A stretch of DNA of 54,501 nucleotides from Bacteroidales bacterium (GTDB taxonomy: Bacteria > Bacteroidota > Bacteroidia > Bacteroidales > GWF2-38-335), in NCBI GenBank assembly GCA_016936815.1, contig JAFGXD010000009.1:1-54501 (forward strand). The letters are read 5' to 3'. Shown here piece after piece: positions 1-48,928 of this stretch; the first letter of the stretch is position 1, and the number at the start of each line of letters is the position of its first letter. The translations under genes and the position numbers were made by a program. The notes below the pieces were generated by a model. That model was not told the DNA's origin and ran no database searches. It saw only the letters and a list, made by a program, of their open reading frames with translations.

Positions 1-312
1 TTAATTTTAACTTTTTTTAATCTCCGTTAGTATACTTTTTTTCACCATTTGTAGATTTCTTTCCGCCTTTTGAAAATTACAACAATACATTATATAATAT
101 AATACGTACATTTGACCAAAGCTTAAATTGAAATGTTTAAGAAACAAAATATAGATATGAATGCTTATATGTTTATATGATTACAAAGCATATTTTTTTT
201 GAAAAAAAAGTTTGGTTTTATCATTAAAGAATATCTATATTTACGGATTGTTAAAAACTGTTAAACTAACTGTTAATAAATAATGTTCTAAACCAATCAT
301 AAATAATTGATT
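1..312. other. AT-rich intergenic region at the left edge
   Basis: No gene is seen here. The stretch is very AT-rich and holds an A/T inverted repeat at about 193-209 (eight T, one G, eight A). A weak Bacteroidota-type promoter for the receptor gene may lie at 211-243: TTTG at 211-214, then 21 bp, then TATATTTA at 236-243, which lacks the final G of the consensus. The leader from there to the ATG at 313 would be about 65 nt. The first bases could be the end of a minus-strand gene outside the window, but nothing supports this. Confidence 0.5.
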
Positions 313-3300
313 ATGCTACGAAAAATACTATTTGTTCTGGTTGCGGTTCTGGCTGCAAATCAAATTTATTCTCAGTCCGGAACACTTAAAGGTAAGATTA
401 CCGACAAGAAAACCGGTGAATCAATTCCGTTTGCAAACGTTTCAATTCTATCTAACGGAAGTATTATTACCGGCGGTATGTCCGATATTGATGGTAATTA
501 CCAGATTAAGCCCGTGCCGGCAGGAAAATATTCAGTTAAGGCATCTTACGTTGGATATTCTCCTCTGCAATTTAATGATGTTCTTGTTAGAGCTGAAAAA
601 ATTACTTTTCAGGATTTTGCTCTTGGAGAATCTTCAGAATTGCTTCCAACAGTTGAAATTAAAAAATATCGTGTTCCTCTTATCGACAAAGAAGGTGGAT
701 CCAGTACAACAGTTACTGCCGAAGATATTGCTAAAATGCCGGGACGTTCTGCAACTGCAGTTGCTGCAACAGTTGGTGGTGTGTTCTCACAAGACGGTTC
801 CATTGGTAGTATCCGTGGTGCAAGATCCGAAGGAACAGAATATTATATAGACGGTGTTAAGGTTCGTGGTTCTGCAAGTCTTCCAAAAGCTGCTCAGGGT
901 GAGGTGAACGTTATTACAGGAGGTCTTCCCGCTCGTTACGGCGACGTTTCCGGTGGTATTATCTCTATTACTACAAGAGGTCCTTCAAGAGTACTTTTTG
1001 GAGGTTTAGAATATGTAACTTCAGGATTTGGAGACAAAGGTGTTCGTTTAGATAATTATGGATACAATCTTTTAGGATTTAGTCTATCAGGTCCATTGGT
1101 AAATATTAAAGATAAATCAGATACCACAGGAAAAACTAAAAAACCTCTAATGGGCTTCTTTATCTCCGGTGACCTTGGTTATATTAAAGACGATAATCCT
1201 TCAATTATTCCGATGTATAAAGTAAATGATGAAGATTTACAATATATAATAGACAATCCTCTAAGACCAACAGGACTTGGATTTGGTACTTTCCAAAATG
1301 CAGATTTCCTTCAGGCAGATGCTTTTACAGAAATTAAATCCAGACCAAATGTTGAGAATTACTACGCTAACTTGGCCGGTAAAATCGATTTCCAACCAAG
1401 TAATAATTTTAATATTACTATTGGCGGTTCATATAACTATATTAACAGACACATGTTTAACTGGTCAGGTTACATTTTTAATAGCGAAAACAATGGCCAA
1501 CAAATTTATAACAACTGGAGGGCTTATGTTAGATTAACCCAGAAATTTAACGATGCTTCCGCTGAACAAGAAAAAAAATCAGCTTCCGTATTCAGCAACG
1601 CCTATTACACTATTCAGTTCGACTACTCCAAAACCGATCAGGTTCTTCAGGATGATTCTCATAAAGATGAATTGTTTAACTACGGTTACGTTGGGAAATT
1701 CACAACTTACAAAAATCCATCTTACGAATGGATGGACACTTTGGCAATAGCTCCCGGTGGTGCTTATGTGCAGAATGGATTTAGAGACACTTTATATGAT
1801 TTCCAATATGTTGATATAAATTCTAGTCTTTCCAAATATACTCAGTATTATTATGACTTATACGATAATAATGCATATTTCAGAAACTCTTTTGTTGTTG
1901 AATCCGGTGGAGCTCTGCTAAATGGGCAATTCCCTTCAAGTGTTTACAGCATGTGGGCTTCTCCAGGTGTTCAATACAACTCTTACAGCATTACAGACCA
2001 ATCACAATTCAGGGTTACTGCTGCTGGTTCTGCCGACATTGGAGACCATGAGATTTCTATTGGATTTGAATTTGAACAAAGAAACGATAGATTCTACGGT
2101 GTTTCTCCTGCTGCTCTTTGGACTTTGGCAAGAGGTTTGGCTAATAACCATATTACTGAACTTGATCAAGCTAATCCTATTCCTTTATACGACAGTTATG
2201 GCGTTTTTCAGGATACCATTTCTTACAACAGATTATATAATGCGCAAAACCAGGCAAGATTCGATATTAAACTTAGAGAAAGCTTAGGAATTCCTATTAA
2301 CAGCACACAATGGTTAGATATTGACTCTTATGACCCCGATCAACTAAAAATTGATTTCTTTAGCGCAGACGAACTTTTTAATCAGGGATATAATCTTGTT
2401 TCTTATGCCGGTTACGATGCTCATGGCAACAGACTTAAATCTATCCCAAGTTTTGAGGATTTCTTTACTAAAACAGATGAGGATGGTAACCTGACCAGAG
2501 AAATTGCTCCTTTTATGCCAACATATTCTGCTGCATATATTCAGGATAAATTTTCTTTTAGAGACCTTATTTTCAATGTTGGAGTTAGAATCGACCGTTT
2601 CGACCTAAACCAAATGGTTCTTAAAGATCCATACTCATTACACGAAACTTACTCAGCCGGCGATATAGAGTCTGTAAACTCTTCAATTATTCCAACAGGA
2701 GGCATTCCCGGAAATATTGGTGATGATTATGTTGTTTATGTAGATAATATTAAGGATCCGGGTAAAATTGTTGGATACAGACATACAACAGATGATGAAA
2801 CTACTTGGTTTACTGCAGACGGTACTGAAACAAACGATCCTTCTGTTTTATATACTTCAACTGGTATTGCTCCTTACTTAGTTAATCCTGATGCAGAGCT
2901 TAATGTAAATGCCTTTAAAGATTATGATCCTCAGGTAGTTGTTATGCCTCGTATCTCATTCTCATTCCCTATTTCAGAAATAGCTCTATTCTTTGCTTAT
3001 TACGATATTCTTTCTCAAAGACCATATAACGGCACTAGATTAGACCCATTGGATTACTACTACATCAACCAAAAGAATAATTCTATTCTTAATAATCCAA
3101 ATGCACGTCCTCAAAAAACTATTGCTTACGAACTTGGATTCCAGCAAAAAATAGGACCATCATCTTCTCTGAAATTATCAGCTTTCTATCGTGAAATGAG
3201 AGATATGCAGCAAGCCATTGCAATGGTTGGTGCATATCCTGTAAACTATATGACTTACGGAAATATTGACTTTGGAACGGTTAAGGGTTTTACTGCTACA

Positions 3301-4005
3301 TACGATTTAAGAAGAACCGGAAATGTTAGTATTAGAACAGCTTATACCTTGCAATTTGCAAGCGGTACAGGTTCAAATGCTGAATCAGGTATTAATCTTA
3401 TTGCATCAGGACAGCCAAACTTAAGAACTCTTATTCCATTAGACTTCGACCAAAGACATAATTTGTCTGCCGTTGTTGATTACCGATTTGGTGGAAAAGC
3501 TAACGGTACTCCTTATAACGGCCCAAAACTTTTTGGAAAAGATTTCTTCCAGAATGTTGGTGTTAACTTTGTTGTTAACTCAGGTTCCGGAACTCCTTAC
3601 AGCAAGCAGATAAATATCTCTCCCGATGCTCTTGGAGGAGGAAGTTCATTCCTTAGAGGTTCAATCAACGGTTCAAGTATGCCTTGGAGAACATCTATTA
3701 ACATGAGATTAGATAAAGACATTAACATTAAACTTGGAAAAGGTGAAGAAGATAAGAAATTTGCAAGTATGAATGTTTATCTTGATATTCAAAACTTACT
3801 AAATACCAAAAATACTGTAGGCGTTTACAGAGCAACAGGTAACCCCGACGATGATGGATATCTTGAATCAGCTCAAGCTCAGGAAACTATTGAAACAATG
3901 AACGATCCTACTGCTTTTGTAAATTACTACCAAATGGCAATTAATGTGCCTTGGAATTATATGCTGCCAAGACGAATTCGTTTAGGTGTTCAAATAAGTT
4001 TCTAA
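313..4005 (+). CDS. TonB-dependent outer-membrane receptor with carboxypeptidase-like N-terminal domain
   Basis: This is an outer-membrane beta-barrel receptor of about 1230 residues that would take up or move a ligand using TonB energy. A signal peptide (MLRKILF..., cut after about residue 20 near YSQ) precedes a carboxypeptidase regulatory-like domain (about residues 22-105, GTLKGKITDKKTGESIPFA). A plug domain follows (about 115-230, with YYIDGVKVRG and ARYGDVSGGIISITTRG), then a long barrel that ends in Phe (RLGVQISF), as usual for barrel proteins. An in-frame TTG lies two codons earlier at 307, but the ATG at 313 gives the normal signal peptide. It is followed 31 bp later by a giant secreted protein and then a PorV-like protein, so the ligand may be protein or the receptor may work with that surface protein. 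No SusD-like partner is present, which argues against a standard glycan uptake locus. Confidence 0.9.
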   Translation: MLRKILFVLVAVLAANQIYSQSGTLKGKITDKKTGESIPFANVSILSNGSIITGGMSDIDGNYQIKPVPAGKYSVKASYVGYSPLQFNDVLVRAEKITFQDFALGESSELLPTVEIKKYRVPLIDKEGGSSTTVTAEDIAKMPGRSATAVAATVGGVFSQDGSIGSIRGARSEGTEYYIDGVKVRGSASLPKAAQGEVNVITGGLPARYGDVSGGIISITTRGPSRVLFGGLEYVTSGFGDKGVRLDNYGYNLLGFSLSGPLVNIKDKSDTTGKTKKPLMGFFISGDLGYIKDDNPSIIPMYKVNDEDLQYIIDNPLRPTGLGFGTFQNADFLQADAFTEIKSRPNVENYYANLAGKIDFQPSNNFNITIGGSYNYINRHMFNWSGYIFNSENNGQQIYNNWRAYVRLTQKFNDASAEQEKKSASVFSNAYYTIQFDYSKTDQVLQDDSHKDELFNYGYVGKFTTYKNPSYEWMDTLAIAPGGAYVQNGFRDTLYDFQYVDINSSLSKYTQYYYDLYDNNAYFRNSFVVESGGALLNGQFPSSVYSMWASPGVQYNSYSITDQSQFRVTAAGSADIGDHEISIGFEFEQRNDRFYGVSPAALWTLARGLANNHITELDQANPIPLYDSYGVFQDTISYNRLYNAQNQARFDIKLRESLGIPINSTQWLDIDSYDPDQLKIDFFSADELFNQGYNLVSYAGYDAHGNRLKSIPSFEDFFTKTDEDGNLTREIAPFMPTYSAAYIQDKFSFRDLIFNVGVRIDRFDLNQMVLKDPYSLHETYSAGDIESVNSSIIPTGGIPGNIGDDYVVYVDNIKDPGKIVGYRHTTDDETTWFTADGTETNDPSVLYTSTGIAPYLVNPDAELNVNAFKDYDPQVVVMPRISFSFPISEIALFFAYYDILSQRPYNGTRLDPLDYYYINQKNNSILNNPNARPQKTIAYELGFQQKIGPSSSLKLSAFYREMRDMQQAIAMVGAYPVNYMTYGNIDFGTVKGFTATYDLRRTGNVSIRTAYTLQFASGTGSNAESGINLIASGQPNLRTLIPLDFDQRHNLSAVVDYRFGGKANGTPYNGPKLFGKDFFQNVGVNFVVNSGSGTPYSKQINISPDALGGGSSFLRGSINGSSMPWRTSINMRLDKDINIKLGKGEEDKKFASMNVYLDIQNLLNTKNTVGVYRATGNPDDDGYLESAQAQETIETMNDPTAFVNYYQMAINVPWNYMLPRRIRLGVQISF

Positions 4006-4036
4006 TTTAATTACGAAAATAAATAAACCAAATAAG

Positions 4037-7000
4037 ATGAAAAGCTTTAGAAATTACTTAATTCTGTCTGTTATTGGGATAGCTTTTATTAATCAGGTTT
4101 ACGCTGACAAATGGAGAGGTCTTACCCCTACTACGAAATCAACCACAGGTGTTACTGCCGGTTGTACTCCCGGTACTACCTCTACCCAAATCGAGCTAAA
4201 CAACGTTAGGGCGTTAATTCACACCGGTGGTGACATGTGGTGGGACTTACAGGGGAACGCCAAATATGAAATTCCGAAAAATTCGGGTAAACAATCTCTT
4301 TTTGCCGGTTCAATATGGATTGGCGGAGTTGACGTAAACGGTCAGCTTAAACTTGCCGCTATGCGTTATCGAGCTAATGGTGTTGACTACTGGCCCGGCC
4401 CCTTGATTACAACAGGCGCTGAAAGAGGTACTACAACTCCTGCTGTTTGTGCACAGTACGACAAACATTTTGATATTACCAAAAACGAGGTACAGGAATT
4501 TGTTGCATGGTTTAATTCCGATGCGGATACAAGAACAAAAGATTTTCCGGGTTATTCACCTCCCGCAATAATTACTGACTGGCCTGCTCACGGCGATGTT
4601 GCTGCCGGTTACTCATGGCACATGGCTCCTTTTGCCGATGTGGATGGCGACGATTATTACGATCCTCTTGGAGCAGGAGATTATCCTATGTATGAACTTT
4701 ATAATGGCCAATATCCTTGCGGAACAAGCCGAGAAGACAGACAAGTAAGGCTTTATGGTGACCAGACTCTTTGGTGGGTTTATAACGACCGCGGTAATAT
4801 TCATACCGAAACTCAGGGAGATCCCATTGGTATGGAAATTAAAGCTCAGGCTTTTGTCTTTTCAACCAGTGACGAACTAAATAATATGACTTTCTATAAC
4901 TACGAACTAATTAACCGTTCCACCTATACACTTACTCAAACCTATTTTGGAGTTTGGACTGATGCTGATATGGGATATGCATGGGACGATTATGTAGGTT
5001 GCGATGTACAGAAAGGATTAGGTTACCTTTACAACGGATTACCTTCTGATGAGGGTGTTAATTATGCATATGGCGGACCGAATCCTCCTCCTCCTGCTAT
5101 TGGAGTTGACTTTTTTGAAGGTCCTTATCAAGACCCCGATGGAATAGATAATGGAAAAACTCCGGTTGATGCCAATGGAACTCTATTATGTGATGGTAAT
5201 ATTTTAAACGGTAATATTAATGGACTAAATTTTGGTGATGGAATTATTGATAATGAACGTTGGGGAATGAGAAGGTTTATTTATTTTAATAATACCGGAA
5301 CAGGTGCTCCTCCAACACAGGATCCATCTACTGCAACTGAACATTACAATTTCCTTTTAGGAATCTGGAAAGATAATACTAAACTTCTTTATGGTGGAAC
5401 AGGACACGTTTCCGGAGGCGCTACTTCAACAGAAACTGACTTTATGTTTCCGGGAACTACAGATAATTGTGGATGGGGACAAGGTGGAATCCCAATGCCA
5501 AAATGGGATGAATATAGTGAAAATAACACCCCTTACGATAGAAGATTTGTTCAATCAGCAGGGCCGTTTACATTAGAGCCCGGTATGGTTAACGATATTA
5601 CTACCGGTATTGTTTGGGCAAGGGCAACAAGCGGAGATCCTTACGAATCGGTAAAAGAAGTAAAACGTGCCGACGTTAAAGCTCAAAAACTTTTTGAAGC
5701 TTGTTTCCAACTAGTAGAAGGACCACAAGCTCCTGAATTAGATATTGTTGAACTTGAAAATGAACTTATTTTCCATATCTGGAATAAGAAAACATCCAAC
5801 AATTATTTAGAGCAATATTTAGTTAAAGATGAACTAAATATTGTTTGTCCAACTGCTTTCGATTGCGATTTATATTACAGATTCCAGGGATATCAGGTAT
5901 TTCAACTTAAGAATTCTGATGTTTCTGTAGGTGACATTCGCGATGCCAGCTTGGCTAGAATTGTTTATCAATGCGATATTAAAGATGGTGTAGGGCAAAT
6001 TGTAAATTACGTTTGGTCCGACGAACTTGGAGCTAATGTGCCTACCGCAATGGTTGCAGGTTCCGATAATGGAGTTACTCACTCATTTAGAATTACAGAA
6101 GACCAGTTTGCTACAGGAGATAAAACTCTTATTAATCACAAAACTTACTATTATCTTGCAATTGCTTACGGTTATAACGATATGAAAAATCTTTCTACCG
6201 GTGCAGCGCATTTATACAATGGAAACGATGCAAACTATATCGATGGTAATAAAGAACCCTACAAAGCTTCAAGAACCGGAGCTGGCGGAGCAATTAAAAC
6301 TTATGCTGTAACTCCGCACAACCCTGCTCCTGAGCAAGGTGGTACTGTTCTTAATTCCACTTATGGTTACGGACCTAAAATTACGCAGTTAGAAGGCTAC
6401 GGAAATGCCAAAAATGTGCTAGAACTTACTAAAGAAACTTTAGACAGCATTATGAGCGGTGCTCCATGGCAAGACTCTACTCCAACCTACGAAAATGGTT
6501 TCGGTCCTATTGATGTTAAGGTTATTAACCCTTTAAATGTTCCTGACAAAGAATTGGTTGTTAGATTCGATTCTATTACAATGATTAGCGCAACAGGTAT
6601 AATAACTGAAAATAATGGCAAATCTGCAAAATGGTATATTTACGAAAAAGCCGATGAATATCAATTGGTTCAGGTAAAAGTTGCAGATACAGCGGCAACA
6701 ACTACTCCACTTTACTTAACAATTTCTGATTATCCTCCATTTAAGGTTGGTGTGTTTAAAAGAAATGCTGCAGGAGAAGTTATTACTCCACTAGAAATTA
6801 TTGATTCCATTGTTTATCCACCTTCAACTGTTTACTCAGACCAGTGGATAAATGTTAATAATGAACAACTTTTCCCTGAATGGGGTATATCAATATCTAT
6901 AAATAAAACCGAATTTCCGGGAGAAAACAATATTGATGCCGGAGGTTACCTTTCATCTTCAATGACATTTACTGACATTACAAAACCATGGTTGTACTTC

Positions 7001-8332
7001 TTACCCGATGAAGACATTGGAGGGGATCCTCAGAACTGGATTCGTTCCGGAACTTTGGAAGATCCAGATGTATCAAGATACAACGATTATGGTGATGATA
7101 AAGAATATTTCGAGAAAATTCTTGATGGAACATGGGCTCCTTATTTGTATGCTTCGCATGATGTTTTCGGCCCTGCTTGGATAACCGGTCATGCTCTTGT
7201 CTCACCAATTAAGCAACGTTTGGCTAGTGTTGATATTGTAATAACCAGCGACAAAACCAAATGGACCAGATGTCCTGTATTTGAATTAAGTGAAAACGAT
7301 TCTATTGATACCAATGGTGATGGAGAATTTGATGCAGTTCAGGAAGGGCCAAGCGGTGTTAGGAAATTTGATCTTAGAAACGCTGCATCTGTTGATAAGA
7401 ATGGTGTTTCTACCAATATTGGAACAGGTGAAGATACATTAACAAACGAAGCTCTTTCTAACTACATTTCCTCAAAAGGAATGGGTTGGTTCCCTGGTTA
7501 TGCTGTTGATGTTGAAACAGGTGATAGATTAAATATGGCATTTGGCGAAAACTCATGGTTAAGTTCTGATAAAGGTAATGATATGATTTGGAATCCTTCT
7601 TCTAGACTATATTCAGATCTTTACTATATGTCCGGTGGTGCTGCGGGTGATGTTGTGTTTGGTGGAATGCATTATATTTATGTGTTTGGTCATAACGAAA
7701 TTGAAACAACAGATCCTAAAAGAATGTGGGCTTATGATGCCGGTAAGGAAATTGTGGCCAGAATGGATCCTTCTGTTACAAACGGAAAGAGAGAAGTTTT
7801 TAGAAATGCAATGTGGACAGCTATTCCGTTGCATAACAGCCAGTACTCTTTATTGGATAACGATGTTACAATTAAAATTCGTATGGCTAACCCGTATAAA
7901 GTTGCTGTTAATGGTTACGGATTAGATAATCCAAAAAACTTCAATTATCCAATGTACTCGTTTAATACATCCGATTTGGTTACTGTTAGAAACGATAATA
8001 CAACAGCCAAAAATTCATTGGATTTAATAAATGTTGTTCCTAACCCATACTACGGTTATTCAGAATACGAACAGACTCAGATTGATAACATCATTAAAAT
8101 CACTAATCTTCCTCAAACTTGTACCATTTCAATTTTTACTCTTAATGGTACCTTAATTAGAAGGTTTAAGAAAGACAGTCCAATAACCGAACTGGAATGG
8201 GATTTAAAGAATACTTATGGTATTTCAATAGCTTCCGGCATCTATATTATTCATATTGATGCACCCGGTATAGGAGAAAAAATTCTTAAGTGGTTTGGTG
8301 TAATGAGACCAATTGACTTACAATCGTTCTAG
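4037..8332 (+). CDS. Giant secreted surface protein with T9SS-type C-terminal domain
   Basis: The product is 1431 residues long and has a signal peptide of about 23 residues (MKSFRNYLILS...VYA). I do not recognise an enzyme domain. The N-terminal half contains many Trp, Tyr and Gly residues and acidic Asp-rich stretches (for example DVDGDDYYDPLGAGDYP), which suggests calcium-binding beta folds. The C-terminus (about residues 1335-1431) resembles a type IX sorting domain: NVVPNPYYGYS, then TISIFTLNGTLIRRF, then GIYIIHIDAPG and KWFGVMRP. It differs from the common version in its longer ending (RPIDLQSF after the last strand). Such a protein would cross the outer membrane by the T9SS and be attached or released at the cell surface. 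It sits between a TonB receptor and a PorV-like protein in the same direction, so the three may form one surface module. The start is the only ATG before the signal peptide. Confidence 0.8.
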   Translation: MKSFRNYLILSVIGIAFINQVYADKWRGLTPTTKSTTGVTAGCTPGTTSTQIELNNVRALIHTGGDMWWDLQGNAKYEIPKNSGKQSLFAGSIWIGGVDVNGQLKLAAMRYRANGVDYWPGPLITTGAERGTTTPAVCAQYDKHFDITKNEVQEFVAWFNSDADTRTKDFPGYSPPAIITDWPAHGDVAAGYSWHMAPFADVDGDDYYDPLGAGDYPMYELYNGQYPCGTSREDRQVRLYGDQTLWWVYNDRGNIHTETQGDPIGMEIKAQAFVFSTSDELNNMTFYNYELINRSTYTLTQTYFGVWTDADMGYAWDDYVGCDVQKGLGYLYNGLPSDEGVNYAYGGPNPPPPAIGVDFFEGPYQDPDGIDNGKTPVDANGTLLCDGNILNGNINGLNFGDGIIDNERWGMRRFIYFNNTGTGAPPTQDPSTATEHYNFLLGIWKDNTKLLYGGTGHVSGGATSTETDFMFPGTTDNCGWGQGGIPMPKWDEYSENNTPYDRRFVQSAGPFTLEPGMVNDITTGIVWARATSGDPYESVKEVKRADVKAQKLFEACFQLVEGPQAPELDIVELENELIFHIWNKKTSNNYLEQYLVKDELNIVCPTAFDCDLYYRFQGYQVFQLKNSDVSVGDIRDASLARIVYQCDIKDGVGQIVNYVWSDELGANVPTAMVAGSDNGVTHSFRITEDQFATGDKTLINHKTYYYLAIAYGYNDMKNLSTGAAHLYNGNDANYIDGNKEPYKASRTGAGGAIKTYAVTPHNPAPEQGGTVLNSTYGYGPKITQLEGYGNAKNVLELTKETLDSIMSGAPWQDSTPTYENGFGPIDVKVINPLNVPDKELVVRFDSITMISATGIITENNGKSAKWYIYEKADEYQLVQVKVADTAATTTPLYLTISDYPPFKVGVFKRNAAGEVITPLEIIDSIVYPPSTVYSDQWINVNNEQLFPEWGISISINKTEFPGENNIDAGGYLSSSMTFTDITKPWLYFLPDEDIGGDPQNWIRSGTLEDPDVSRYNDYGDDKEYFEKILDGTWAPYLYASHDVFGPAWITGHALVSPIKQRLASVDIVITSDKTKWTRCPVFELSENDSIDTNGDGEFDAVQEGPSGVRKFDLRNAASVDKNGVSTNIGTGEDTLTNEALSNYISSKGMGWFPGYAVDVETGDRLNMAFGENSWLSSDKGNDMIWNPSSRLYSDLYYMSGGAAGDVVFGGMHYIYVFGHNEIETTDPKRMWAYDAGKEIVARMDPSVTNGKREVFRNAMWTAIPLHNSQYSLLDNDVTIKIRMANPYKVAVNGYGLDNPKNFNYPMYSFNTSDLVTVRNDNTTAKNSLDLINVVPNPYYGYSEYEQTQIDNIIKITNLPQTCTISIFTLNGTLIRRFKKDSPITELEWDLKNTYGISIASGIYIIHIDAPGIGEKILKWFGVMRPIDLQSF

Positions 8333-8403
8333 TTCTGTATAGATTAAAAATTGAATTTTGAAGAACATCCATTATGAAGAAAATAAAATTAAAAAATAAA
8401 ATC

Positions 8404-9456
8404 ATGAAAAGGTTTTCAATTTCTCTGGCAAGCTTTATTCTGGCAATTTTATTGGTAGCTCCTATGTCAATGTTTGCCGGCAACAAGCAAAGAGCCGGTT
8501 CAGCAGGAGCAACTCAATTGCTAATTAACCCTTGGGCCAGAAGTTCAGGTTTTGGTAATGCCAATGCAGCATCTATAAGAGGTTTGGAATCTCAGTATCT
8601 AAATGTTGCAGGTACTGCTTTTGTAACAGGAACAGAACTGATTTTTGTCCACACCAACTGGCTTGCAGGAGCTGATATTGGAATAAATGCGTTTGGTTTC
8701 TCACAAAAAGTAAGCGAAACCGGAGTGCTTTCACTTTCTGTAATGTCAATTGACCTTGGAAAAATTCCTATTACTACAGTTGCTTTACCTGAAGGTGGAA
8801 TAGGAACATTCCATCCGGTTTTTACCAATATTGGCCTTTCTTATGCAAAAGCATTCTCCAATAGTATTTTTGGAGGTATGACTTTAAGAATAGTTAATGA
8901 GGGAATTACCGACGTTAAAGCAAGCGGCGTTGCTATTGATGCAGGTATTCATTACGTTACAGGCAAAAACCAACAGATTAAATTTGGTATTGCCCTTAAA
9001 AACGTTGGCCCAACAATGAAGTATTCAGGCGATGGTCTTACTGTTAGAGCAGATTTGCCATCGGAACTTAACATGACAGTTGAGCAAAGATCTGCAGAGT
9101 TTGAATTGCCTTCATTAATGAATATTTCTGTTTCATACGATTTTATTTTCAATGAAAACAATATTCTGCAAATGGCAGGTACTTTTACATCAAATTCTTT
9201 TACAAAAGACCAGATTTGTCTTGGCAGCGAATACAATTTCCGTAATCTTATCCTTGCCAGAGTTGGATATGTTTACGAGGAAGGCGTTTTCGATTACGAA
9301 ACAAGAGAAACTGCTTTTACCGGACCAACATGCGGTTTATCTGTTCAAATCCCTATGAACAAAGAGAAAGGTTCAGTATTTGCAGTAGAGTATTCTTACC
9401 GCGACACAAACCCATTTAATGGAGTTCATTCAATTCAGGCAAGAGTTACTTTGTAA
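8404..9456 (+). CDS. PorV/PorQ-like outer-membrane beta-barrel protein
   Basis: About 350 residues with a signal peptide ending near SMFA. The mature protein begins with GSAGATQLLINPWARSSGFGNANAAS, a start typical of the PorV/PorQ (UPF0164, FadL-like) family: small residues, a marker-like AxxLLI segment, then a glycine-rich turn. Repeated amphipathic strands run to the C-terminus (HSIQARVTL). In T9SS systems PorV carries cargo from the translocon to the attachment complex, and PorQ-like paralogues do related jobs. An ATG ten codons upstream (8374) is possible, but the ATG at 8404 is preceded by an A-rich AAATC context like that of hcp and pepD in this window, and it gives a normal short n-region. 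It lies 71 bp behind the T9SS-type surface protein, which fits a dedicated partner role. That pairing is inference. Confidence 0.75.
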   Translation: MKRFSISLASFILAILLVAPMSMFAGNKQRAGSAGATQLLINPWARSSGFGNANAASIRGLESQYLNVAGTAFVTGTELIFVHTNWLAGADIGINAFGFSQKVSETGVLSLSVMSIDLGKIPITTVALPEGGIGTFHPVFTNIGLSYAKAFSNSIFGGMTLRIVNEGITDVKASGVAIDAGIHYVTGKNQQIKFGIALKNVGPTMKYSGDGLTVRADLPSELNMTVEQRSAEFELPSLMNISVSYDFIFNENNILQMAGTFTSNSFTKDQICLGSEYNFRNLILARVGYVYEEGVFDYETRETAFTGPTCGLSVQIPMNKEKGSVFAVEYSYRDTNPFNGVHSIQARVTL

Positions 9457-9480: not shown

Positions 9481-9485
9481 TATAG

Positions 9486-9520
9486 AAAGAGTCCCGATGT
9501 AGTCGGGATTCTTTTTCTTT
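9486..9520 (+). terminator. Intrinsic terminator or leader hairpin before greA
   Basis: TCCCGA (9492-9497) pairs with TCGGGA (9503-9508) around a 5-nt loop, and the stem extends outward through AAGAG/TTCTT with one G-T pair. A T-rich run (CTTTTTCTTTT) follows. It can end transcripts from the PorV-like gene. It also lies just downstream of the greA promoter, so it may act as a leader terminator. Confidence 0.75.
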
Positions 9521-31220: not shown

Positions 31221-32342
31221 ATGAAAAAACTATTGCTTCTATTTTTTGTAACATTAATTGTTTTATCAAATGCACAAACAACAAAAAATTTTGTTTGGGA
31301 TGGCACAAACAGAGAGTATATTGAATATGTTCCCGCCATTTATGACGGCACAGAAGCTGTTCCATTAGTAGTTTGTCTGCATGGTTTGGGAGACAACATG
31401 ACAAACTTTTCGGGAATAGGAATGCATACCTTAGCAAATTCAGAAAATTTTATTGTACTTACACCTCAGGCATTAATTGCTTATTATGGAACATATGAGT
31501 TTGGAACTGCGTGGAACTCGGGGGCTAGCTATTTGGGAATAGTACTAAATTCATCTGTTGACGATCTTGGATTTTTCAATGCAATGATTGACAGCACTAT
31601 GGCGTTATACAATATTGATCCAAACAGGATTTATTTTACCGGCTTTAGTATGGGAGGTTTTATGTGTCAGAGAGTTGCTGCGGAAATGAATTCAAGGGTA
31701 GCAGCTATAGCCTCAGTGGCCGGGACAATAGGCAACGCAATGACAGCCATTCCGCCTGCATCAATGCCGGTATTACATTGCCATGGAACAGCCGACACTC
31801 AGGTTCCTTACGAAGATAACAATTATGGAAACGATGCAGAAGAACTTATAAACTATTGGGTAACATTTAACAATTGCGATACAGAACCAATAATTGACAC
31901 CCTTCCCAATAATGTAGCCGATGGGATTACTGTAATAAAATATTTGTACGACAATGGAGATTATTCAACAGACGTGGAGTTTTACAAAGCTGTTGGTGCC
32001 GATCATCAATGGTTATATCCACCGACAAATGATATGAGTTATACAATTGCTATTTGGGAATTTTTCTCAAGACACAGCAAAGAACCGTTTGTAAATACTG
32101 AAGATATTAAATTAATAGAAAACGGAATAATTTTTCCTAACCCTGCCAACGATTATTTGCAAATAAACAGTGGAATTTACAAAAAATATGAAATATTAAG
32201 TCTTGAAGGAAAACTAATAATTTCAGGTGATATAAACAAAAACACGGACTTAGATGTTTCTTTCCTGGACAATGGTTGTTATTTCATAAAATTAACAAAC
32301 GATATTAATAGTATTACTGAAAAGATTATTATTTCCAGATAA
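31221..32342 (+). CDS. Secreted PHB-depolymerase-like esterase with T9SS sorting domain
   Basis: A protein of 373 residues with a signal peptide (to about residue 18). The alpha/beta hydrolase domain has the oxyanion region VVCLHGLGDN (about 50-59), the nucleophile Ser143 in GFSMGG, a likely acid Asp192 in HGTADTQVPY and a likely His262 in GADHQW. The order and spacing match the LpqC/poly(3-hydroxybutyrate) depolymerase and feruloyl esterase family. The C-terminus (about 303-373, IIFPNPANDYLQINS, then CYFIKLTNDIN and TEKIIISR) is a type A T9SS sorting domain, so the enzyme acts outside the cell. Polymer, ester or peptide substrate cannot be told apart from sequence. Confidence 0.88.
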   Translation: MKKLLLLFFVTLIVLSNAQTTKNFVWDGTNREYIEYVPAIYDGTEAVPLVVCLHGLGDNMTNFSGIGMHTLANSENFIVLTPQALIAYYGTYEFGTAWNSGASYLGIVLNSSVDDLGFFNAMIDSTMALYNIDPNRIYFTGFSMGGFMCQRVAAEMNSRVAAIASVAGTIGNAMTAIPPASMPVLHCHGTADTQVPYEDNNYGNDAEELINYWVTFNNCDTEPIIDTLPNNVADGITVIKYLYDNGDYSTDVEFYKAVGADHQWLYPPTNDMSYTIAIWEFFSRHSKEPFVNTEDIKLIENGIIFPNPANDYLQINSGIYKKYEILSLEGKLIISGDINKNTDLDVSFLDNGCYFIKLTNDINSITEKIIISR

Positions 32343-45883: not shown

Positions 45884-47149
45884 TTAACCCCACAAATTCT
45901 TAAGAAAGGCAGTTATTTCCCTTTCCCTTGCATTATCGCCCGGTTCAAAGAACTTATTACCGGAAAGCTCCATGGGCAGGAATTCTTGTTTCACGAAATT
46001 TCCATGAAAAGAATGAGCATATTTATAATCGTTAGCATAGCCCAAATCCTTCATAAGTTTAGTTGGAGCATTTCTAAGATGGAGAGGCACAGGCAAATCT
46101 CCTGTTTTTGCAGCAATATCGAGAGCCTTATCAATTGCCAGATAAGATGAATTACTTTTTGGAGAACATGCCAGATAGATTGCAGTTTGCGACAAAATAA
46201 TTCTTGCTTCCGGCATTCCAATAACTGAAACCGCACTAAAACAGCCATTTGCAAGCAGTAAAGCATTTGGATTTGCAAGACCAATATCCTCTGAAGCAAG
46301 AATTACCATTCTTCGGGCAATAAACTTAATATCTTCCCCACCCTTTAACATTCTTGCGAGCCAATAAACTGCTGCATTCGGGTCGGAACCGCGAATTGAT
46401 TTAATAAAGGCTGAAATAATATCGTAATGTTGTTCTCCGGATTTATCGTAAAGGGCAATATTTTCCTGAAGTTTTTCACTAACTTTTTTATTTGTAATTG
46501 TAATTTGATTGGTAGATTCCGAATTAACAATTATCTCCAAAATATTCAGCAGTTTTCTGGCATCACCTCCCGAAAAACGGAATAAAGCATCCCTTTCCTT
46601 AACAACAATTTTTTTCTTTAATAATTCGGCATCTGTTGTAATTGCTTTTGTTAAAAGTTCTTCAAGTTCTTTAGCCCCAAAAGACTTTAGAATATAGACC
46701 TGACAGCGGCTAAGCAAGGGAGAAATTACCTCAAAAGACGGATTTTCGGTAGTTGCACCAATTAAAGTTACCGTACCATTTTCAACAGCCCCCAGCAATG
46801 AATCCTGCTGAGATTTGGAAAAACGATGAATTTCATCAATAAACAAAATAGGGTTAGGATTATTGAATAGCTCCTGTTTTCCAGCTTTTTCAATAATTTC
46901 TCTAATATCTTTCACTCCTGAATTTATTGCACTAAGAGTAAAGAAACCTCGTTTTGATTCATTTGCAATAATTCGTGCCAAAGTGGTTTTACCAACACCC
47001 GGAGGTCCCCATAATATCATTGATGGAACATTACCGGAATCAAGAGATTTTCTTAGAATAGCCTTATTTCCGACCAAATGACCTTGCCCGATATAATCGT
47101 CGAGATTTTTTGGTCGCATTCTTTCAGCAAGTGGTTTTTGAAATTTCAT
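45884..47149 (-). CDS. rarA: Replication-associated recombination protein A (RarA/MgsA)
   Basis: A protein of 421 residues. The AAA+ core has GPPGVGKTTLARIIA (Walker A, near residue 52), LFIDEIHRFSKSQQDSLLGAVENG (Walker B) and the sensor region GATTENPSFEV. The C-terminal tetramer domain is present (ASEDIGLANPNALLLA, and YAHSFHGNFVKQEFLPMEL). RarA acts at stalled replication forks. Its first ATG is clear at 47149. A second gene on the other strand starts 60 bp away, so the short space between may hold both promoters. Confidence 0.96.
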   Translation of the reverse strand: MKFQKPLAERMRPKNLDDYIGQGHLVGNKAILRKSLDSGNVPSMILWGPPGVGKTTLARIIANESKRGFFTLSAINSGVKDIREIIEKAGKQELFNNPNPILFIDEIHRFSKSQQDSLLGAVENGTVTLIGATTENPSFEVISPLLSRCQVYILKSFGAKELEELLTKAITTDAELLKKKIVVKERDALFRFSGGDARKLLNILEIIVNSESTNQITITNKKVSEKLQENIALYDKSGEQHYDIISAFIKSIRGSDPNAAVYWLARMLKGGEDIKFIARRMVILASEDIGLANPNALLLANGCFSAVSVIGMPEARIILSQTAIYLACSPKSNSSYLAIDKALDIAAKTGDLPVPLHLRNAPTKLMKDLGYANDYKYAHSFHGNFVKQEFLPMELSGNKFFEPGDNAREREITAFLKNLWG

Positions 47150-47180
47150 TTTGCTTTTAATAAAAAAACGGTTAAATTTA
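47150..47180 (+). promoter_or_regulatory. Promoter of the T9SS cargo gene at 47210
   Basis: TTTG at 47150-47153, 19 bp, then TAAATTTA at 47173-47180, one mismatch to the consensus. TAAATTTA is itself a palindrome and could be read by the polymerase on either strand. Confidence 0.4.
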
Positions 47181-47209
47181 GGCTTTTAAAACTAAAAGTC
47201 TTTATTACT

Positions 47210-48928
47210 ATGAAAAAAATAACTATTCTATCACTGTTTTTGTCATTTAGCCTACATTTTTATGCTCAGGAACCTGTTATAGAAGGAAGGTTTCTACCCG
47301 TTATGAATACTGCATTTCAACAAGCTTGGGACACCATGGCTTCCGACTTTGCCGTAACAAGTCCGGGTCCCAACCAGTTTTGGGATTATTCTACTACATT
47401 CGACAACATAGCTGATATTACACTATTTCCAACCATGCCGGCAATGGAATCTCCATATGGATATCTTTTTCCATTGGCCACACATGCAAGTCATTTGCCT
47501 AGTTTAACAGGAGATTCGTTGTACTACTATTTTTACGTAGATACTTTAGGTTTTCATGTTGTAGGAAATTACTCATTTATTCCTGAGGCAACAACAGCAT
47601 TTACTTATACCGATTATGAATTAATGATACCTGATGAAATACATTATTTGGATGTTATTTCAGATCATTCCAGAGCAATTGGAGATTTTACTTACAGCGG
47701 ATTTGCGGCACGTCATCAAATTAGTTCTGATGTTACATACACAGCTGATGCTTACGGAACCCTAGCACTTCCTTTAGCGACTTTTGGTGAAGTAATGAGG
47801 ATTGAAGAAGTTAGAATAATATACGATTCTATTTATGTGGATTTTATGGGTATGGGAACCTACTCTTTTCTAACAAGTCAGGTTCTAAATATTCACAGAT
47901 ACCATTTTATGAGAAATAATACCTATGGCACAACATTATTAATGAATATTGATCTTAATGGCTCAGGAATAGCCAATTATGCTTGGTATTCAATTCCTTA
48001 TAATACAGGAAACATTGAAGGAATTGTTTATAATTCCGATTTGTTACCTGTTATTTCAGGAGAAGCCTACCTTTTTAGAGAATGTTCAAATTTTACCAAA
48101 GACGATATTTTGGCCGTTTCAACTCTTGATGGAACAGGCACTTACCACTTCGACTCAATACCTTACGGGCAATATTTTATAGGAGTTAGGCCTGATCCTT
48201 TGTCAAATCCAAATTCATTATTTACTTATTACGGAGATACAACAAAATGGCAAAATGCTACTATTCTGGAGCTTGAATCTGATACTAGCGACATAAACAT
48301 TAACCTTTGCTACCACGAGCCATTAACAGGTTTAAGTATGCTTTCAGGAAACATTATAGAAAATTTCGGTTACCACCCAGGAACAAAAAATTCTAAATCG
48401 TACGGTGAACCTGTACCGGGGGCCGAAATTTATCTTGAACAAGAACCTGAAGGAGAACCTATTGCATGTAATCACTCAAACGAATTCGGAGATTTTGAAA
48501 TTACCAATGTTCCAAATGGCGTTTATCGCTTATTTGTCGATTTACCCGGGCTTAAAATGAGCAACACTTATAATATTACAGTTATTGGAGGTTCTATTTG
48601 GGGTGAACTTGATTTTGTAATGGGTTCGGATTCAATTTATGCTGTAAATGAGGTAACATCAATTCTTACTAATAATCAAAACTCAGGAATAAAAATATTC
48701 CCTAATCCTGCTAAAGATTATTTCGAAGTTAAACTTACGGAAAATTTTGGAGCAGAAAGGTTATCGATATTAAGTATTGACGGCAAGCACATTACTGATA
48801 TTTCATTAAATAATAATTCCGAAAAAACTATTATTGACATAAGAAAGCATAGACTTTCTAAAGGAATCTACCTATTAAGACTGTCGGGAAATAAAGGAGA
48901 ATATTTTGAAAAGCTTGTAATTGAATAA
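47210..48928 (+). CDS. Secreted protein with carboxypeptidase-like repeats and T9SS type A sorting domain
   Basis: A protein of about 572 residues with a signal peptide (MKKITILSLFLSFSLHFYAQ). The first 270 residues are a beta-rich domain I do not recognise (PNQFWDYSTTFDNIADIT). Two carboxypeptidase regulatory-like segments follow (GNIEGIVYNSDLLPVISGEAYLF, and VPGAEIYLEQEPEGEPIACN). The end (about 500-572, IKIFPNPAKDYFEVKL, then GIYLLRLSGNKGEYFEKLVIE) is a T9SS type A sorting domain. The ATG at 47210 is chosen because in-frame codons upstream run into rarA on the other strand and lack a signal peptide. Function unknown. Confidence 0.85.
   Translation: MKKITILSLFLSFSLHFYAQEPVIEGRFLPVMNTAFQQAWDTMASDFAVTSPGPNQFWDYSTTFDNIADITLFPTMPAMESPYGYLFPLATHASHLPSLTGDSLYYYFYVDTLGFHVVGNYSFIPEATTAFTYTDYELMIPDEIHYLDVISDHSRAIGDFTYSGFAARHQISSDVTYTADAYGTLALPLATFGEVMRIEEVRIIYDSIYVDFMGMGTYSFLTSQVLNIHRYHFMRNNTYGTTLLMNIDLNGSGIANYAWYSIPYNTGNIEGIVYNSDLLPVISGEAYLFRECSNFTKDDILAVSTLDGTGTYHFDSIPYGQYFIGVRPDPLSNPNSLFTYYGDTTKWQNATILELESDTSDININLCYHEPLTGLSMLSGNIIENFGYHPGTKNSKSYGEPVPGAEIYLEQEPEGEPIACNHSNEFGDFEITNVPNGVYRLFVDLPGLKMSNTYNITVIGGSIWGELDFVMGSDSIYAVNEVTSILTNNQNSGIKIFPNPAKDYFEVKLTENFGAERLSILSIDGKHITDISLNNNSEKTIIDIRKHRLSKGIYLLRLSGNKGEYFEKLVIE

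What the first reader, a model, noticed from the sequence alone, without database searches (positions are those of the whole stretch)
313..9456. Three-gene surface module: TonB receptor, giant T9SS-type protein, PorV-like barrel
The three genes are in one direction with gaps of 31 and 71 bp. The receptor has no SusD partner. The 1431-residue cargo has a distinct C-terminal ending (NVVPNPYYGYS ... KWFGVMRPIDLQSF) that is longer than the common type A domain, and a PorV/PorQ paralogue follows directly. A dedicated carrier encoded with its cargo and a TonB-linked receptor would be a special export or attachment unit, distinct from the main T9SS.
Basis: partly seen in the sequence, partly recalled or inferred. 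Interest (0 to 1): 0.55.

Follow-up and report, generated by a model that had tools for sequence, protein, structure and literature searches.

The report
TonB receptor, T9SS cargo, dedicated carrier
Three neighbouring genes, conserved as a unit across the Bacteroidota, appear to build one surface machine: a TonB-powered receptor, a large exported partner protein, and an outer-membrane carrier that seems dedicated to delivering and holding that partner.

Summary
A TonB-dependent receptor (313-4005), a 1431-aa protein (4037-8332) and a PorV/PorQ-family barrel (8374-9456) look like one operon, closed by a strong terminator-like hairpin. The unit is an old three-gene module. Of 140 distinct homologues of the large protein, 99 have both partners beside them; the other 41 are second copies, contig-end cases or stand-alone giants. 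Ten genomes with stand-alone giants were checked: all ten hold the barrel elsewhere, nine with giant and receptor before it. In 198 genomes of the order the barrel never occurs without the large protein (78 of 78). In 20 regions round barrels from other orders and classes, 19 show the triad. The barrel is a separate clade beside PorV, PorQ and PorV2 and nearest to PorV in fold. The large protein ends in a PorZ-like sorting domain plus a conserved 12-residue tail, the only close match to that profile in this genome. I read it as a T9SS-exported partner of the TonB receptor, held at the surface by its own carrier, as PorQ holds PorZ. Export, binding and function are inferred; the fold model could not test docking.

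The parts
70..98 (+). promoter-like site upstream of the receptor (TTGAAA-17-TATAAT, 11 of 12)
   Evidence: consensus match only, and such sites are not more frequent in the region than in shuffles (24 against 36.9)
313..4005 (+). TonB-dependent receptor, 1230 aa: signal peptide, CarboxypepD_reg domain, Plug, barrel
   Evidence: orthologue directly upstream of the giant and barrel downstream in 99 of 140 distinct giants
4037..8332 (+). large protein proposed as exported partner, 1431 aa: signal peptide, no lipobox seen by eye, conserved N-module about residues 30-714, C-terminal sorting domain
4163..5713 (+). super-beta-sandwich domain (giant residues about 43-559)
   Evidence: AlphaFold2 model; structural matches Z 14.6-19.1 to N-domains of carbohydrate-active enzymes
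7985..8329 (+). PorZ-like T9SS C-terminal sorting domain of the giant
   Evidence: 47 of 47 module domains hit NF052228 PorZ; profile hits PorZ structure 5m11 at E 5e-4
8294..8329 (+). conserved C-terminal tail FGxxRPxDLxxF after the lysine and tryptophan that follow the last strand
   Evidence: of 97 module giants R-8 in 95, D-5 in 94, final F in 93; absent from PorU and PorZ of this genome
8374..9456 (+). PorV/PorQ-family barrel, 360 aa (350 aa if started at 8404); proposed dedicated carrier
9484..9516 (+). terminator-like hairpin closing the unit before greA
   Evidence: 15 pairs

Best explanation
The three genes make one outer-membrane surface complex. The large protein is taken to the periplasm by its signal peptide and crosses the outer membrane through the ordinary SprA translocon. 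Its PorZ-like C-terminal domain, with the conserved 12-residue tail, is collected by the barrel encoded next to it instead of by PorV. The domain stays uncleaved and bound to that barrel, as PorZ is held by PorQ and PorU by PorV, so the protein remains on the surface. There it serves as the extracellular partner of the TonB-dependent receptor, probably catching a glycan-like or other large ligand with its super-beta-sandwich N-module and handing it to the receptor: a T9SS-delivered counterpart of SusD in a SusC-SusD pair. Shown here: the gene arrangement, family assignments, predicted folds, module-wide conservation and the conserved tail. Inferred: passage through SprA, dedicated binding, retention of the domain, contact with the receptor, and uptake as purpose.
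For: Unit inheritance: 99 of 140 distinct giants have both partners adjacent. Ten genomes with a stand-alone giant all hold a module-type barrel, and in 9 of 10 a giant and a receptor lie before it. The barrel never occurs without the giant, 78 of 78 in 198 genomes. The triad is seen in 19 of 20 regions round barrels of other orders and classes; the 20th is cut by a contig end. In three genomes with two different modules (G557, G442, G339) all three genes group by module type and not by genome; distance matrices of 16 modules agree, r 0.83-0.91, permutation p 0.0002. Carrier type: separate branch 100/99 beside PorV, PorQ and PorV2; PorV is the closest solved fold, Z 33.6 against 29.1 for the best FadL-type channel. 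One cargo for one carrier: the domain profile finds one strong match in each of two genomes (198 and 197 bits), the next being at 30.7 and 29.0 bits. Domain swap: about 800-aa paralogues of the N-module carry ordinary type A tails. Precedent: PorU:PorV and PorQ:PorZ subcomplexes with retained domains (PMC5562754, abstract and passages).
Against: No experiment and no docking evidence: the read-through model of the giant's C-terminal part plus barrel has pTM 0.61, its last two tail residues fall under pLDDT 50, and neither coordinates nor pair errors were returned. The domain borders on type A, so PorV might carry it and PorU might cut it. Stand-alone giants keep a similar tail without a barrel beside them, and tandem second copies in L141, L148 and L160 lack the full tail, so tail and barrel are not strictly tied. 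The receptor's ligand is unknown, the giant matches no Pfam family, and the super-beta-sandwich match shares fold only. In G550 and G542 the three gene trees do not fully agree. Six genomes of the order have the giant without a strong barrel match; two of these are contig-end cases, four were not examined. Many co-inherited operons are regulatory rather than physical partnerships.
Confidence: 0.5

Rival explanations
1. The receptor helps export or assembly and is not an importer. Like PorF of Porphyromonas or Oar of Myxococcus it uses TonB energy to move or release the cargo, and the three genes form a self-contained export and attachment unit.
For: C. hutchinsonii PorV co-purifies with SprA and a TonB receptor related to PorF, a receptor needed for gingipain secretion (PMC8564354, passages); the TonB-dependent transporter Oar is needed for PopC secretion (PMC6434023, abstract). 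Of the pairs compared, receptor and giant agree best across 16 modules (r 0.91).
Against: Known type A and type B cargo leave through SprA without a receptor in their operon (recalled). No Oar- or PorF-specific family is among the hits of the window receptor; neither protein was compared directly. The mechanism has no direct precedent with a T9SS domain that I know of.
Confidence: 0.17
2. The large protein is an ordinary T9SS cargo: its type A-like domain is carried by PorV and cut by PorU, and the barrel has another role (signalling, stabilising the receptor). The genes only share regulation.
For: The domain scores 23.4 bits on TIGR04183, just over the cut-off of 23, when scanned alone, and 47 of 47 domains match that model at E <= 0.1; type A domains vary widely and long and short forms are both predicted to use PorV (PMC11969387, abstract and passages). 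150 type A matches were scored in this genome.
Against: All 47 domains scanned match PorZ, with the best E-value of any family, and PorZ keeps its domain. The 12-residue tail is absent from the type A paralogues seen. A barrel of carrier type follows the cargo across the phylum, and the domain has one strong match per genome while type A is multi-copy.
Confidence: 0.18
3. The barrel is a FadL-type channel for hydrophobic compounds; with the receptor and a surface protein it takes up a lipid-like or aromatic substrate, and has nothing to do with secretion.
For: PorV and FadL share a fold; FadL-type channels are the next matches at Z 25.8-29.1.
Against: PorV structures rank first (Z 33.6 and 33.1); PorV_fam 141 bits and no FadL family among the hits in Pfam or NCBIfam; profile hit to PorV at E 5.5e-13; the protein beside it carries a T9SS-type domain.
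Confidence: 0.06
4. The barrel and giant are a variant of BamG with BamH-type surface subunits and belong to outer-membrane protein assembly.
For: BamG is a FadL-family barrel that binds a surface protein by its loops (PMC12578637, PMC12611786, abstracts and passages).
Against: Chains of the solved Bacteroidota BAM complexes, presumably BamG, match less well (Z 24.1-25.8); the giant shows no lipobox by eye while BamH is a lipoprotein; the module is in 78 of 198 genomes of the order, whereas BamG and BamH are reported as conserved across the phylum.
Confidence: 0.03

Closest known systems
PorZ-PorQ and PorU-PorV of the T9SS attachment complex (Porphyromonas gingivalis)
   Same: A large exported protein with a PorZ/PorU-type C-terminal domain paired with a PorV/PorQ-family barrel; PorU and PorV genes are neighbours in this genome too
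   Different: A separate barrel branch, a 12-residue conserved tail lacking in PorU and PorZ of this genome, a TonB receptor as third gene; present in only part of the T9SS genomes of the order (78 of 187 with SprA)
Type B cargo with cognate PorP/SprF shuttle (Flavobacterium johnsoniae)
   Same: Dedicated carrier gene directly downstream of its cargo gene (PMC12618676, abstract and introduction)
   Different: Carrier is of the PorV/PorQ family, not PorP/SprF (18.3 bits against a cut-off of 90.55); the window's domain matches no type B model; a TonB receptor lies upstream in all complete modules seen
SusC-SusD uptake pairs
   Same: TonB receptor with CarboxypepD_reg domain encoded with a large partner; more than one copy in many genomes of other classes
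   Different: No SusC model among the hits; partner is no SusD by Pfam and shows no lipobox; it has a T9SS-type domain and its own barrel
PorF (PG0534) and Oar, TonB receptors tied to secretion
   Same: TonB receptor linked to protein export
   Different: Not compared by sequence here; in what was read neither is described with a cargo-carrier pair
PorV2 (NF052325), putative type IX sorting protein
   Same: Third known paralogue of PorV/PorQ; present in this genome
   Different: Separate clade; ours scores 43 bits against a cut-off of 325

Membership tests
PorV/PorQ family (NF033709) | score over the curated cut-off of 90 bits | tested here: met
   141.3 bits
PorV (NF033710) | score over 250 bits; clade with PorV | tested here: not met
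   70.3 bits; separate branch; true PorV of this genome at C119, 499 bits
PorQ (NF033711) | score over 220 bits; clade with PorQ | tested here: not met
   61.6 bits; true PorQ at C167, 369 bits
PorV2 (NF052325) | score over 325 bits | tested here: not met
   43.1 bits; true PorV2 at C185, 490 bits
FadL transporters | FadL-type chains as best structural match | tested here: inconclusive
   FadL-type chains match at Z 25.8-29.1, behind PorV at 33.6
T9SS type A sorting domain (TIGR04183, PF18962) | score over the curated cut-off | tested here: inconclusive
   TIGR04183 17.8 whole protein, 23.4 domain alone, cut-off 23; PF18962 17.4, cut-off 27
T9SS type B sorting domain (TIGR04131, PF13585) | match to the model | tested here: not met
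   no match for the window; 9 of 47 domains match PF13585, best E 0.0045
Retained-domain attachment pairs (PorU-PorV, PorZ-PorQ) | C-terminal domain of the PorU/PorZ kind | tested here: met
   47 of 47 domains hit PorZ and 46 of 47 PorU at E <= 0.1; PorZ structure at E 5e-4
Retained-domain attachment pairs (PorU-PorV, PorZ-PorQ) | domain uncleaved and bound to the partner barrel | not testable with these tools
   model pTM 0.61, no coordinates or pair errors returned
SusC-SusD | receptor matches SusC models; SusD gene adjacent | tested here: not met
   no SusC model among the hits; no SusD-sized same-strand nearest gene within 250 bp upstream in 82 loci; downstream gene matches no Pfam family
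Type B cargo with PorP/SprF shuttle | downstream barrel of the PorP/SprF family | tested here: not met
   TIGR03519 18.3 bits against 90.55
Oar-like or PorF-like secretion receptor | Oar- or PorF-type sequence and a secreted client | not tested
   no Oar or PorF sequence was compared; Pfam gave no barrel family for the window receptor, while 14 of 31 rows hit PF00593 and one PF14905

The most novel reading that the evidence does not exclude
The Bacteroidota possess a second, phylum-wide way of building two-part TonB transporters. Instead of a SusD-type surface lipoprotein, the partner of the receptor is exported by the T9SS and held for good by a private PorV-type barrel that reads a 12-residue C-terminal tail; the three genes duplicate and diverge as units in several lineages.
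Probability: 0.33. Interest if true: 0.85.

Novelty: new variant of a known kind. Interest (0 to 1): 0.66.

Why it matters
Dedicated carriers are known for type B cargo, and PorQ and PorV hold PorZ and PorU, but a carrier of the PorV kind tied to one cargo and to a TonB receptor, conserved across classes and multi-copy in many genomes, did not appear in the listings and passages I saw from nine searches. If it works as proposed, it links the T9SS to TonB uptake, shows that T9SS cargo can be fixed at the surface by its carrier alone, and offers a natural test of what a sorting domain's tail encodes: the same N-module occurs with two kinds of tail in one genome.

Tried and rejected
FadL transporter and BamG-type readings of the barrel were set aside on fold rank and family scores. 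SusC was set aside because no SusC model was among the hits. The first impression that many giants stand alone was misleading: ten such genomes of 24 stand-alone cases were checked, and each has the barrel at another place, nine with giant and receptor before it. 'PorV2' in PMC10994853 was a false hit, PorV with a reference number. Six genomes have the giant but no strong barrel match (G023, G054, G095, G114, G127, G136): the giants looked at in G023 and G114 run off contig ends; the other four genomes were not examined. Modelling the giant's C-terminal part and barrel together gave good folds (pLDDT 88.1) but no usable docking result. The structure comparison of that model covered mainly the barrel, so the giant's part from about residue 760 to 1300 has no fold assignment. 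A PDB sequence search with the profile of the giant's N-terminal part found nothing. Rows dropped before counts: 5 genomes with only weak giant matches (G031, G037, G055, G092, G185) and 4 with only weak barrel matches (G062, G093, G114, G194); giants under 1000 aa; identical copies of the same contig. Five of the 20 regions (L294, L296, L302, L310, L312) were left out of the distance comparison. The tree warns of long branches meeting, and a fifth small branch (L272, L274) lies outside the named clades. The Fisher and Mantel values are not corrected for shared ancestry. The count of genomes with two or more barrel matches (66 of 124) was read by eye from the table and added up; at most five candidates per genome were scored, and only 20 places were inspected. 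SusC, GH and taxon names beyond what the tools printed are recalled.
Full report
What was checked. The receptor starts at ATG 313 and ends at 4005; the 1431-aa protein is 4037-8332; the barrel is 8374-9456, with a second possible start at 8404. All three begin with plausible signal peptides and none shows a lipobox cysteine there by eye. A strong terminator-like hairpin (15 pairs, 9484-9516) closes the unit before greA, and the two gaps hold none, so the three genes look like one transcription unit. Bacteroidota promoters are not covered by that scan.

What the proteins are. Receptor: CarboxypepD_reg plus Plug, no SusC model among the hits; a 31-row profile finds TonB receptors in the PDB by the plug, and N-terminal domains of a SusC homologue and others. 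Barrel: PorV/PorQ family at 141 bits against a cut-off of 90, but far below the cut-offs for PorV, PorQ and PorV2. This genome has its own PorV (499 bits, next to PorU), PorQ (369) and PorV2 (490) elsewhere. A tree of 64 proteins puts the 31 module barrels on one branch, support 100/99, apart from those three clades, with a warning about long branches. In a predicted model its best solved matches are PorV chains (Z 33.6 and 33.1), then FadL-type channels (up to 29.1) and chains of Bacteroidota BAM complexes, presumably BamG (24.1 to 25.8).

The large protein. Pfam finds nothing in it. Its end is a T9SS sorting domain of the PorZ kind: all 47 module domains scanned match NF052228 PorZ, the family with the best E-value, 46 match PorU, and all 47 type A weakly; the profile finds the PorZ crystal structure at E 5e-4. 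After the last strand comes a tail. Over 97 module giants (the window and 96 others) it reads K-W-F-G-x-x-R-P-x-D-L-N-x-F, with R in 95, D in 94 and the final F in 93. PorU and PorZ of this genome, and the type A paralogues looked at, end without it. The profile of this domain finds one strong match in this genome (198 bits) and one in its congener (197), the next, at PorU's place in this genome, being at 30.7 and in the congener at 29.0 bits; 150 type A matches were scored in this genome. The N-part (about residues 43-559) is predicted as a super-beta-sandwich like the N-domains of glucoamylase, GH65, GH94 and GH116 proteins (Z 14.6 to 19.1 over 231 to 274 residues), without any family hit for a catalytic part. 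This suggests, and does not show, carbohydrate contact. Paralogues of about 800 aa with the same N-module carry ordinary type A tails in this genome (C73) and, as a row of genes, in the congener. The same body thus exists with two kinds of export tag.

Conservation in the order and beyond. A search for the large protein gave matches in 89 of 198 genomes of the order, 5 of them weak only, and 540 relatives in named genome contigs, of which the best 78 loci were kept. From the 158 loci examined I took 140 distinct giants of 1000 aa or more. By ORF searches have the receptor directly upstream and the barrel directly downstream on the same strand, and tblastn adds 3, making 99. Of the other 41, eight have one partner and a contig end on the other side, 5 are second copies just behind the barrel, 4 lie near a contig end without either partner in place (one of them, L197, has a barrel upstream by tblastn), and 24 stand alone, 17 of these with titles that I place in the Flavobacteriales. 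Gaps are mostly 0 to 60 bp. greA follows in 84 of 92 triads with room, hinT in 80.

The apparent exceptions turned into support. Ten of the genomes with a stand-alone giant were searched for PorV-family barrels. All ten hold one of the module type (430 to 540 bits on the module profile, every other one examined at most 73). In nine of the ten a further giant precedes that barrel and a receptor precedes the giant, once with the receptor cut by the contig end; in the tenth the contig begins at the barrel. At least in these genomes the lone giants are therefore extra paralogues.

Co-occurrence. In the 198 genomes of the order the barrel (strong match) is in 78, the giant (strong match) in 84, both in 78, and the barrel alone in none; Fisher p 1.6e-48, not corrected for ancestry. 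Of the six with giant only, the two that I looked at have giants cut by contig ends, with the receptor before them where visible. SprA is in 187 of 198; the barrel is in 78 of those and in none of the 11 without SprA (p 0.004).

Across the phylum. In 395 genomes drawn from the phylum, 132 have the barrel at E <= 1e-25: this genome, 7 of the same class and 124 of other classes, 66 of those 124 with two or more matches. I fetched 20 regions, 3 of the same class and 17 of other classes. Nineteen show receptor, domain protein and barrel in that order; in L294 the barrel and in L296 all three are seen only by tblastn, in L302 the receptor is split over two frames, in L310 it is cut by the contig start. 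L312 is cut by the contig end within the sorting domain. Conservation covers both the N-module and the C-terminal domain. In the 16 modules compared, 14 tails end in F or Y. In G557, G442 and G339, which carry two different modules, receptor, giant, domain and barrel each lie nearest to the same module type of other genomes and not to the second module of their own genome; matrices agree at r 0.83 to 0.91. G550 and G542 give partly conflicting neighbours. On the whole the genes travel and diverge as units.

Mechanism. The best reading is a T9SS-exported surface partner of a TonB receptor, collected and kept by a private PorV-type barrel. The printed precedent is strong on the pairing principle: PorU with PorV and PorZ with PorQ form subcomplexes and keep their domains (PMC5562754, abstract and passages); a review suggests that cognate PorV-like barrels may protect such domains from cleavage (PMC10202324, passages); type B cargo uses a cognate PorP/SprF shuttle often encoded downstream (PMC12618676, abstract and introduction); PorV carries type A cargo out of SprA (PMC10994853, passages). 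What is not shown here: that this barrel binds this domain, that the tail is what it reads, that the domain is retained, and what the receptor moves. Joint modelling gave good folds but no test of docking.

Novelty. Nine literature searches did not turn up this module in the listings and passages seen; the library lacks most subscription journals and preprints. The principle of a dedicated carrier is known, so I call it a new variant of a known kind. Its strength is breadth and strictness of linkage; its weakness is that every functional step is inferred.

Noticed in passing
L107 (G001:C2:197000-216999); own genome C73:23644-25992 and C29:4083-5072: About 800-aa paralogues of the giant's N-module with ordinary type A tails, four near one another in the congener, followed by a 627-aa frame matching the giant's C-part (752-1419) also with a type A-like tail; C29 holds a fragment matching giant 1078-1337 that ends in a type A tail.
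   Followed up: partly
L297 (G542:C18:198500-218400): Two complete modules and an additional module-type barrel in a row, in another class of the phylum.
   Followed up: partly
own genome C81:26657-31438 and C129:4832-5203: A 1662-aa frame with PorU-like body and domain on the contig that also holds SprA, and a 1490-aa frame with a PorU-like C-terminal domain.
   Followed up: no
window 31221-32342 and 47078-48928: Two further genes of the window end in type A sorting domains over the cut-off.
   Followed up: no
own genome, all contigs: 150 type A sorting-domain matches scored of 240 candidates in a 3.58-Mb draft genome: a very large T9SS cargo set.
   Followed up: no
upstream of the receptor in related loci (for example L168:4749-5222, L146:4832-5182): Small same-strand genes of about 100 to 190 aa stand before the receptor in many of the loci printed, of at least two sequence kinds by eye; possibly an extra component or just neighbours.
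   Followed up: no
L141, L148, L160: Tandem second giant behind the barrel with a shortened tail ending KWFGS...QE and without the RPxDL motif.
   Followed up: no
L170, L172, L180, L183, L195: Public titles such as Chitinophaga pinensis, Delongbacteria, Sphingomonadales or Chryseobacterium gleum sit on contigs whose giants resemble those of Bacteroidales or Flavobacteriales titles; the names of these metagenome bins look doubtful (no taxonomic test was made).
   Followed up: no
L302:5446-8851: The receptor of this module is split over two overlapping frames, by a real or sequencing frameshift.
   Followed up: no
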